This document shows positions 49,040-49,681 of a stretch of DNA of 64,000 nucleotides, one piece after another (positions within the stretch are counted from its first letter, which is position 1; each line of letters starts with the position of its first letter). The DNA is from Dehalococcoidia bacterium (GTDB taxonomy: Bacteria > Chloroflexota > Dehalococcoidia > Lucifugimonadales > JAGWBF01): positions 1-64,000 of the forward strand of contig JAGWBJ010000016.1 of assembly GCA_021295955.1 (NCBI GenBank). The letters are read 5' to 3'. Below the pieces are notes generated by a model. It was not told the origin of the DNA and searched no databases. It saw only the letters and a program-made list of their open reading frames with translations. The position numbers were made by a program, and so were the translations under genes.

Positions 49040-49681
49040 ATGGCAGCGGACGACGGCAAGGCGCAGATGGGCGAGACCCCCGTAAACGTAACGGTCTGGT
49101 ACGATTACATCTGACCCTGGTGCTACGTCGGCCTGGAGCGGGTCGACAGGCTCAGGGAGGACTCGGGCGTAACCGTGCAGGGCAAGGCGTTCATCTTGCG
49201 GCCGGACATTCCCAAGGAAGGCATGACCCGGGAACCTCGGCCCGGAGAGGTCGGCGACCAGCTCAGCGAGCCCCTGCGCACCTTCGCCGAGGAGGCCGGC
49301 TTGGTGATGCGCCGTTCCTCCTGGACGCCCAACACGATGTACGCCATGGAGGCGACGGAGTACGCCCAGCAGCAGGGGCAGTTCGACGCCTTCCACCTGG
49401 CCGCCTACAAGGCCTACTGGGAGGACGGGAAGGACCTGGGCGACTTGGACGTGATCCGCGAGATTGCGCTGGGCTGCGGGCTGGACTGGCCCGAGCTATC
49501 CCGGAGGCTGGAGTCCGGCCACCACCGGAGCGACGTCCTGGCCCAGCACCAGCAGGCCCTGAGCCTGGGGGTAAACGCCATACCGGCGTTCCTGGTGGGA
49601 AACCAGTTCTTCATGGGCGCCCAGAGATACGAGATCTTCCAACTGGCCCTGGCCAGGGCCAAGGAAGCGACGCGGGCCTAG
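49040..49681 (+). CDS. DsbA/FrnE-like thiol:disulfide oxidoreductase, candidate selenoprotein (in-frame TGA at 49112..49114)
   Basis: GGAGGGG RBS, ATG 49040, MAADDGKAQMGETPVNVTVWYDYI-[TGA]-PWCYVGLERVDRLREDSGV...; frame intact to TAG at 49681; TGA occupies the first Cys position of CPWC. Confidence 0.82.
49112..49157 (+). promoter_or_regulatory. candidate bacterial SECIS element
   Basis: TGA then CCCTGG(49115-49120)/TCAGGG(49152-49157) and GCCTG(49131-49135)/CAGGC(49147-49151) stems; 11-nt apical loop GAGCGGGTCGA starts with G. Confidence 0.65.

What the first reader, a model, noticed from the sequence alone, without database searches (positions are those of the whole stretch)
49040..49681. 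Hidden selenoprotein: DsbA/FrnE-like oxidoreductase with TGA in place of the first active-site Cys (U-P-W-C)
The supplied ORF track starts this protein at 49175, inside the gene. Reading upstream in the same frame gives ATG at 49040 behind a GGAGGGG RBS and MAADDGKAQMGETPVNVTVWYDYI-TGA-PWCYVGLERV..., with no other stop until 49681. In DsbA/FrnE/HCCA-isomerase proteins this position is the N-terminal nucleophilic Cys of CPWC, which is where selenocysteine replaces Cys in redox enzymes. The rest of the protein looks intact. Sec-containing DsbA-like proteins are known as a class, so the possible novelty is this subfamily, lineage and context.
Basis: partly seen in the sequence, partly recalled or inferred. 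Interest (0 to 1): 0.92.

Follow-up and report, generated by a model that had tools for sequence, protein, structure and literature searches.

The report
Selenocysteine version of FrnE redox protein
A gene in a Chloroflexota (SAR202-type) bacterium that standard gene-callers cut short really encodes a disulfide-handling enzyme with the rare amino acid selenocysteine in its active site; the enzyme class was known, but it turns out to be very widespread in this bacterial phylum.

Summary
Window 49040-49681 (+) is one ORF interrupted only by TGA at 49112-49114; the tool's ORF list starts it wrongly at 49175. With TGA as Sec it is a full-length PF01323 protein whose nearest solved relatives, by sequence and predicted fold, are FrnE of Deinococcus and SCO1869. 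The TGA sits exactly on the first Cys of CPWC. The genome encodes tRNA-Sec(UCA), SelA, SelB and SelD, and SelD itself has an in-frame TGA. All 37 closest hits carry TGA at this codon. TGA forms occur across Chloroflexota, and stop-free homologs carry TGC/TGT there. tRNA-Sec was found in 68 of 71 genomes with the TGA form against 23 of 33 with only the stop-free form. A hairpin follows the TGA, and codon-preserving shuffles show selection for it confined to that stretch. Pseudogene, sequencing error and global code change are rejected. Most likely it is a cytoplasmic Sec-dependent FrnE-type thiol-disulfide oxidoreductase; Sec insertion and the reaction are inferred. Sec-containing DsbA-like proteins (COG2761) have been reported since the 2005 Sargasso Sea survey, so this is a new member of a known kind. 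Its spread through SAR202 and Chloroflexota I did not find described in the papers searched.

The parts
49030..49037 (+). Shine-Dalgarno-like GGGAGGGG before the true start
   Evidence: read directly
49040..49681 (+). Sec-FrnE / DsbA-like gene, 213 aa with TGA read as Sec, stop TAG
   Evidence: translation; PF01323 E=7.5e-34; FrnE 5cp1/5cnw E about 8e-19; AlphaFold pLDDT 94.4, best PDB fold matches D. radiodurans FrnE
49112..49114 (+). TGA codon for selenocysteine 25 (first residue of U-P-W-C)
   Evidence: 37/37 closest hits TGA at this codon; stop-free homologs TGC/TGT
49121..49123 (+). TGC codon of the resolving Cys28
   Evidence: 90% or more conserved in a 35-sequence alignment
49115..49157 (+). 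bSECIS-like hairpin (core 49127-49147, apical loop about 49136-49138, G-rich)
   Evidence: -26.6 kcal/mol, z -3.35; codon-preserving shuffle mean Z -1.57 over 71 genes, confined to this stretch; partial covariation
49583..49585 (+). Pro182 codon; invariant, by position the cis-Pro loop of the thioredoxin fold
   Evidence: invariant column; identity as the cis-Pro is inferred from the family

Best explanation
The gene encodes a cytoplasmic FrnE-type (DsbA-superfamily) thiol-disulfide oxidoreductase in which selenocysteine replaces the N-terminal nucleophilic cysteine of CPWC. UGA at codon 25 is decoded by SelB with Sec-tRNA-Sec, directed by the hairpin that starts right after it in the coding region. 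The Sec25 selenolate attacks a substrate disulfide, or is oxidised, and Cys28 resolves the Sec-containing intermediate. Shown by computation: the conserved reading frame, the TGA on the catalytic column, the Sec machinery in the genome, the RNA hairpin under codon-level selection, and the FrnE fold (predicted). Inferred: actual Sec insertion, the redox direction (reductase or isomerase more likely than oxidase, because there is no signal peptide), the substrate, and the partner that regenerates it.
For: In-frame TGA at the FrnE active-site Cys. TGA at the same codon in 37/37 closest hits, in more divergent homologs of the order and phylum-wide, with TGC/TGT in stop-free homologs. tRNA-Sec, SelB, SelA and SelD in the same genome; SelD has a TGA in SLAHCAG-U-AAKF. 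tRNA-Sec in 68/71 TGA-form genomes against 23/33 stop-free-only genomes, Fisher p 4.7e-4. Hairpin just after the TGA, with codon-preserving folding bias confined to that stretch. Predicted fold pLDDT 94.4, with FrnE structures as the top five PDB hits. Invariant D22, U25, P26, P182 and nearly invariant C28. No hydrophobic N-terminus.
Against: No protein or expression evidence. 17 of 108 TGA-form genomes in the order lack a strong tRNA-Sec hit, as expected for incomplete draft genomes but not proven to be that. The order-level concordance of gene and tRNA-Sec is weak (p 0.016) because nearly the whole order has tRNA-Sec. RNAalifold returned no consensus pairs over all 72 sequences, probably because the inner stem pairs in two registers. 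The assembly has 7% estimated contamination and the Sec genes lie on other contigs.
Confidence: 0.93

Rival explanations
1. Pseudogene or sequencing error: TGA is a nonsense mutation or a miscall.
For: A single stop in one draft genome could be either.
Against: Same codon TGA in 37/37 closest hits and across several classes of the phylum, with the rest of the frame intact and conserved on both sides.
Confidence: 0.01
2. Genome-wide reassignment of TGA (table 4 or 25), with Trp or Gly inserted.
For: TGA is in frame here and in selD.
Against: Other genes of the window end in TGA (both CoA-transferases and a glycosyltransferase). SelA and SelB have no internal stop. The column is Cys, not Trp or Gly, in homologs. 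tRNA-Sec with a UCA anticodon is present.
Confidence: 0.01
3. A shorter protein starts downstream at GTG 49175 and the upstream part is not translated.
For: The ORF list starts it there.
Against: The segment VWYDYI-U-PWCYVGL is conserved in homologs that are only 35-60% identical overall; the truncated protein would lack the first strand, the active site and helix 1 of the predicted fold; many relatives have a Met about 22-25 codons before the TGA.
Confidence: 0.02
4. Sec is inserted, but the protein is not a disulfide reductase or isomerase: it may be a peroxidase-like, glutathione-dependent or mycoredoxin-like enzyme, or an isomerase of the HCCA/kappa-GST branch.
For: The fold also matches HCCA isomerase, kappa GST and Rv2466c-type proteins, at lower scores. 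No conserved operon fixes the substrate.
Against: The active site is U-P-W-C like FrnE CPWC, and FrnE is the best match by sequence and by fold.
Confidence: 0.2

Closest known systems
Sec-containing DsbA-like protein, COG2761 / PF01323, UxxC (Sargasso Sea 2005, PMC1088965; 'DsbA 1' in GOS 2008, PMC2398784; 'DsbA-like form 1' in the 2026 review, PMC13188914)
   Same: Same Pfam family, same UxxC motif with Sec at the first position, in-frame UGA followed by a bacterial SECIS; more abundant in marine than other samples
   Different: Those came mainly from metagenome reads or a few genomes. The texts searched do not mention SAR202, or Chloroflexota for this protein. Whether this clade equals their sequences was not tested.
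FrnE of Deinococcus radiodurans (DR_0659; PDB 5cnw, 5co3, 5coh, 5cp1, 5xwh)
   Same: Fold, position and sequence of the active site (CPWC against UPWC), predicted cytoplasmic
   Different: Sec instead of Cys; the C-terminal CX4C that regenerates DrFrnE is absent (only U25, C28 and C146 are present)
NF041057 Rcas_1661 family thioredoxin-like (seleno)lipoprotein
   Same: Also a thioredoxin-like (seleno)protein model; matches residues 97-205
   Different: 46.6 bits against a cut-off of 190; no lipoprotein-like hydrophobic N-terminus here
HCCA isomerase / kappa GST branch (2imd, 3fz5, 3rpp)
   Same: Overall fold
   Different: Lower match scores; from general knowledge these use Ser or a glutathione site rather than a CxxC pair

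Membership tests
Bacterial selenoprotein | In-frame UGA at a catalytic Cys position, conserved in orthologs and replaced by Cys codons in homologs | tested here: met
Bacterial selenoprotein | Genome encodes tRNA-Sec, SelA, SelB, SelD | tested here: met
Bacterial selenoprotein | bSECIS hairpin shortly downstream of UGA with G in the apical loop | tested here: met
   hairpin 49115-49157, about 21 nt from UGA to the loop, loop GAG; codon-preserving test over 71 genes. Consensus folding over all rows failed.
Bacterial selenoprotein | Selenium shown in the protein | not testable with these tools
   needs 75Se or mass spectrometry
FrnE subfamily of DsbA (COG2761 / cd03024) | PF01323 domain and best match to FrnE | tested here: met
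   the COG and CDD models themselves were not available
FrnE subfamily of DsbA (COG2761 / cd03024) | CP(W/F)C redox motif | tested here: met
   UPWC with Sec for the first Cys
FrnE subfamily of DsbA (COG2761 / cd03024) | C-terminal CX4C (present in many but not all FrnE, PMC8945050) | tested here: not met
   no second Cys pair; S. roseofulvus and D. maricopensis FrnE also lack it, so it is not a defining feature of the subfamily
FrnE subfamily of DsbA (COG2761 / cd03024) | Cytoplasmic, no signal peptide | tested here: met
   no hydrophobic N-terminal stretch; simple hydropathy only
Rcas_1661 (seleno)lipoprotein NF041057 | Score above the curated cut-off | tested here: not met
   46.6 against 190 bits

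The most novel reading that the evidence does not exclude
Sec-FrnE is an old, core selenoprotein of Chloroflexota, and of SAR202 in particular. It has been duplicated there and has switched between Sec and Cys several times (U-PWC, U-PFC, U-PHC, and even U-PHS without a resolving Cys), so public annotations of this protein in an abundant marine bacterial group are probably mostly truncated.
Probability: 0.55. Interest if true: 0.5.

Novelty: new member of a known kind. Interest (0 to 1): 0.42.

Why it matters
It corrects a systematic annotation error: the start is placed after the active site, so the catalytic residue is lost. It adds a well-supported selenoprotein to SAR202/Chloroflexota; Chloroflexi had 3 selenoproteins in the 2006 survey (PMC1794560). 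It links an abundant marine lineage to selenium use in cytoplasmic disulfide metabolism, and gives a large natural set of Sec/Cys homologs for comparing the two residues.

Tried and rejected
Pseudogene or miscall, TGA reassignment and a downstream start were tested and rejected. RNAalifold on 72 sequences gave no consensus structure: the inner stem uses two registers, with columns 21/31 C-G in 35, G-C in 11, A-U in 3 and unpaired in 23 sequences, so covariation support is only partial and I rely on the codon-preserving shuffles. Gene order: no neighbour is shared by most loci, so the context does not reveal the substrate. tRNA-Sec concordance within the order is weak, so the phylum was used instead. 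A first script read some loci on the wrong strand and was replaced. PHROGs gave only a family of unknown function. Rfam found no known element at the site in the window scan. The plasmid collection gave only homologs below 36% identity in the rows shown, annotated as DsbA family oxidoreductases or unannotated. One pairwise comparison failed on wrong coordinates.

Full report
What is there. Window 49040-49681 (+) starts with ATG behind GGGAGGGG, has a single in-frame TGA at 49112-49114 and ends in TAG. The ORF list under the standard code starts the gene at GTG 49175, which removes the active site. Read with TGA as Sec, the 213-residue product matches PF01323 (DSBA, E 7.5e-34, residues 17-204). 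Its best sequence matches among solved structures are Deinococcus radiodurans FrnE (E about 8e-19) and Streptomyces SCO1869; in the FrnE alignment the TGA pairs with the first Cys of CPWC. An AlphaFold model from 35 homologs has mean pLDDT 94.4, and the top five PDB fold matches are all DrFrnE, followed by SCO1869, then more distant DsbA, HCCA-isomerase and kappa-GST folds.

Does the genome decode Sec? The assembly (2.56 Mb, 30 contigs, 88% complete, 7% contamination) has a tRNA-Sec of 71 bits with anticodon UCA, SelB (364 bits), SelA (530 bits) and SelD (380 bits). SelD has one TGA, in the motif SLAHCAG-U-AAKF, which from general knowledge is the usual SelD Sec/Cys position, so the genome appears to hold at least one further selenoprotein. 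TGA is also used as an ordinary stop nearby, so this is not a code reassignment.

Is the TGA conserved? In 250 genomes of the same order, 137 have a homolog at E up to 1e-3, and nearly all of the stronger hits (above roughly 38% identity) carry exactly one TGA. In the 37 closest hits the TGA is at the same codon each time, in the context (Y/W)YDYI-U-PWCY(V/I)GL with few variations. Some of these loci are the same genome drawn from two collections. Named records among them are SAR202 cluster, Dehalococcoidia and Chloroflexi/Chloroflexota draft genomes. More divergent paralogs read U-PFC, U-PHC and U-PHS, while others have TGC or TGT at this codon (CPWC, CPHC, CPHS). A phylum-wide sample of 399 genomes gave 71 genomes with a TGA form. 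I checked the codon in 20 of these plus three listed with an extra stop: the TGA is on the same column in all of them, and the stop-free homologs that the scan could read have TGC/TGT there.

Does the gene follow the Sec trait? Over the phylum sample, tRNA-Sec is found in 68 of 71 genomes with the TGA form, in 23 of 33 with only a stop-free form (Fisher p 4.7e-4) and in 215 of 295 without a homolog. Genomes are related, so these p values are optimistic. Within the order the contrast is weak (91 of 108 against 101 of 142; p 0.016) because most members decode Sec; the reduced genomes of three genera (G075-G091) lack both.

Is there a SECIS? The 51 bases from the TGA fold into one hairpin of -26.6 kcal/mol, z -3.35 against dinucleotide shuffles, none of 200 as stable; with 10 more bases the z falls to -1.4, so this test depends on the chosen stretch. 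The stronger test shuffles synonymous codons within each gene: over 71 genes the 42 bases just after the TGA fold better than their own recodings (mean Z -1.57, SE 0.12), the next window less so (-0.69), and windows further along lie between +0.25 and -0.43. The eight stop-free genes give a weaker -0.63 with SE 0.43. The genes are related, so the standard errors are too small. Covariation is partial: columns 21/31 change together (C-G, G-C, A-U), but 23 of 72 sequences do not pair there and appear from their single folds to use a shifted register; RNAalifold found no common structure.

How it most likely works. Sec25 is the attacking residue and Cys28 the resolving one; D22, P26, W127, G177 and P182 are invariant and Cys28 nearly so. 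There is no hydrophobic N-terminus, so a cytoplasmic enzyme of the FrnE type is likely. FrnE proteins are described as predicted cytoplasmic thiol oxidoreductases, and DrFrnE as a cytoplasmic disulfide reductase whose C-terminal CX4C helps regenerate the active site (PMC8945050). This protein lacks the CX4C, as do some Cys FrnE proteins, so its regeneration must differ. Redox direction, substrate and partner are inference.

Context and history. The window neighbours are two CoA-transferase family III genes upstream on the other strand and a TPR protein downstream. No neighbour is shared by most relatives. In one family (f36) the gene often precedes NuoE-, NuoF- and NuoG/FdhA-like subunits that look like an NAD-linked formate dehydrogenase module, with a HAD hydrolase upstream. 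On a tree of 84 homologs the Sec and Cys labels need three changes; rooting is by midpoint, so direction is open.

What is known. Sec-containing DsbA-like proteins of COG2761 with UxxC were reported from the Sargasso Sea in 2005 (PMC1088965; that COG2761 is the FrnE group is from my own knowledge), were more abundant in marine than nonmarine samples in GOS (PMC2398784) and are listed in 2022 and 2026 reviews (PMC9312934, PMC13188914). Searches for selenoprotein or selenocysteine together with SAR202 found nothing on point, and Chloroflexi had three selenoproteins in the 2006 survey (PMC1794560); Dehalogenimonas, in the same phylum, is reported to have the sel genes and a Sec formate dehydrogenase (PMC13390414). 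The library holds open-licence papers only, so absence there is not proof of novelty. The verdict is a real selenoprotein, a new member of a known kind, with an apparently undescribed breadth in Chloroflexota.

Noticed in passing
L118:4043-4099 (G218:C27:31562-32140): A paralog with TGA in U-PHS context (Ser instead of the resolving Cys) inside a clade of CPHS proteins that lie beside a conserved gene resembling a uracil-DNA glycosylase; either a single-Sec active site or a recent gain.
   Followed up: partly
L070:5294-8589 and similar f36 loci: Downstream of the Sec-FrnE gene: NuoE-like, NuoF-like and Fer2_4/Molybdop_Fe4S4 proteins, apparently an NAD-linked formate dehydrogenase module.
   Followed up: partly
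L021 (G000:C6:52470-53390): The genome's selD has an in-frame TGA at its catalytic position, so it is probably a selenoprotein too.
   Followed up: partly
G075-G091 (genera g43-g45 of the order): Small genomes (0.7-1.5 Mb) lack both a strong tRNA-Sec hit and the Sec-FrnE gene, suggesting loss of the Sec trait with genome reduction.
   Followed up: partly
window 29181-29536 and 29587-30792: Three tRNA genes directly upstream of what looks like a tuf (EF-Tu) gene.
   Followed up: no
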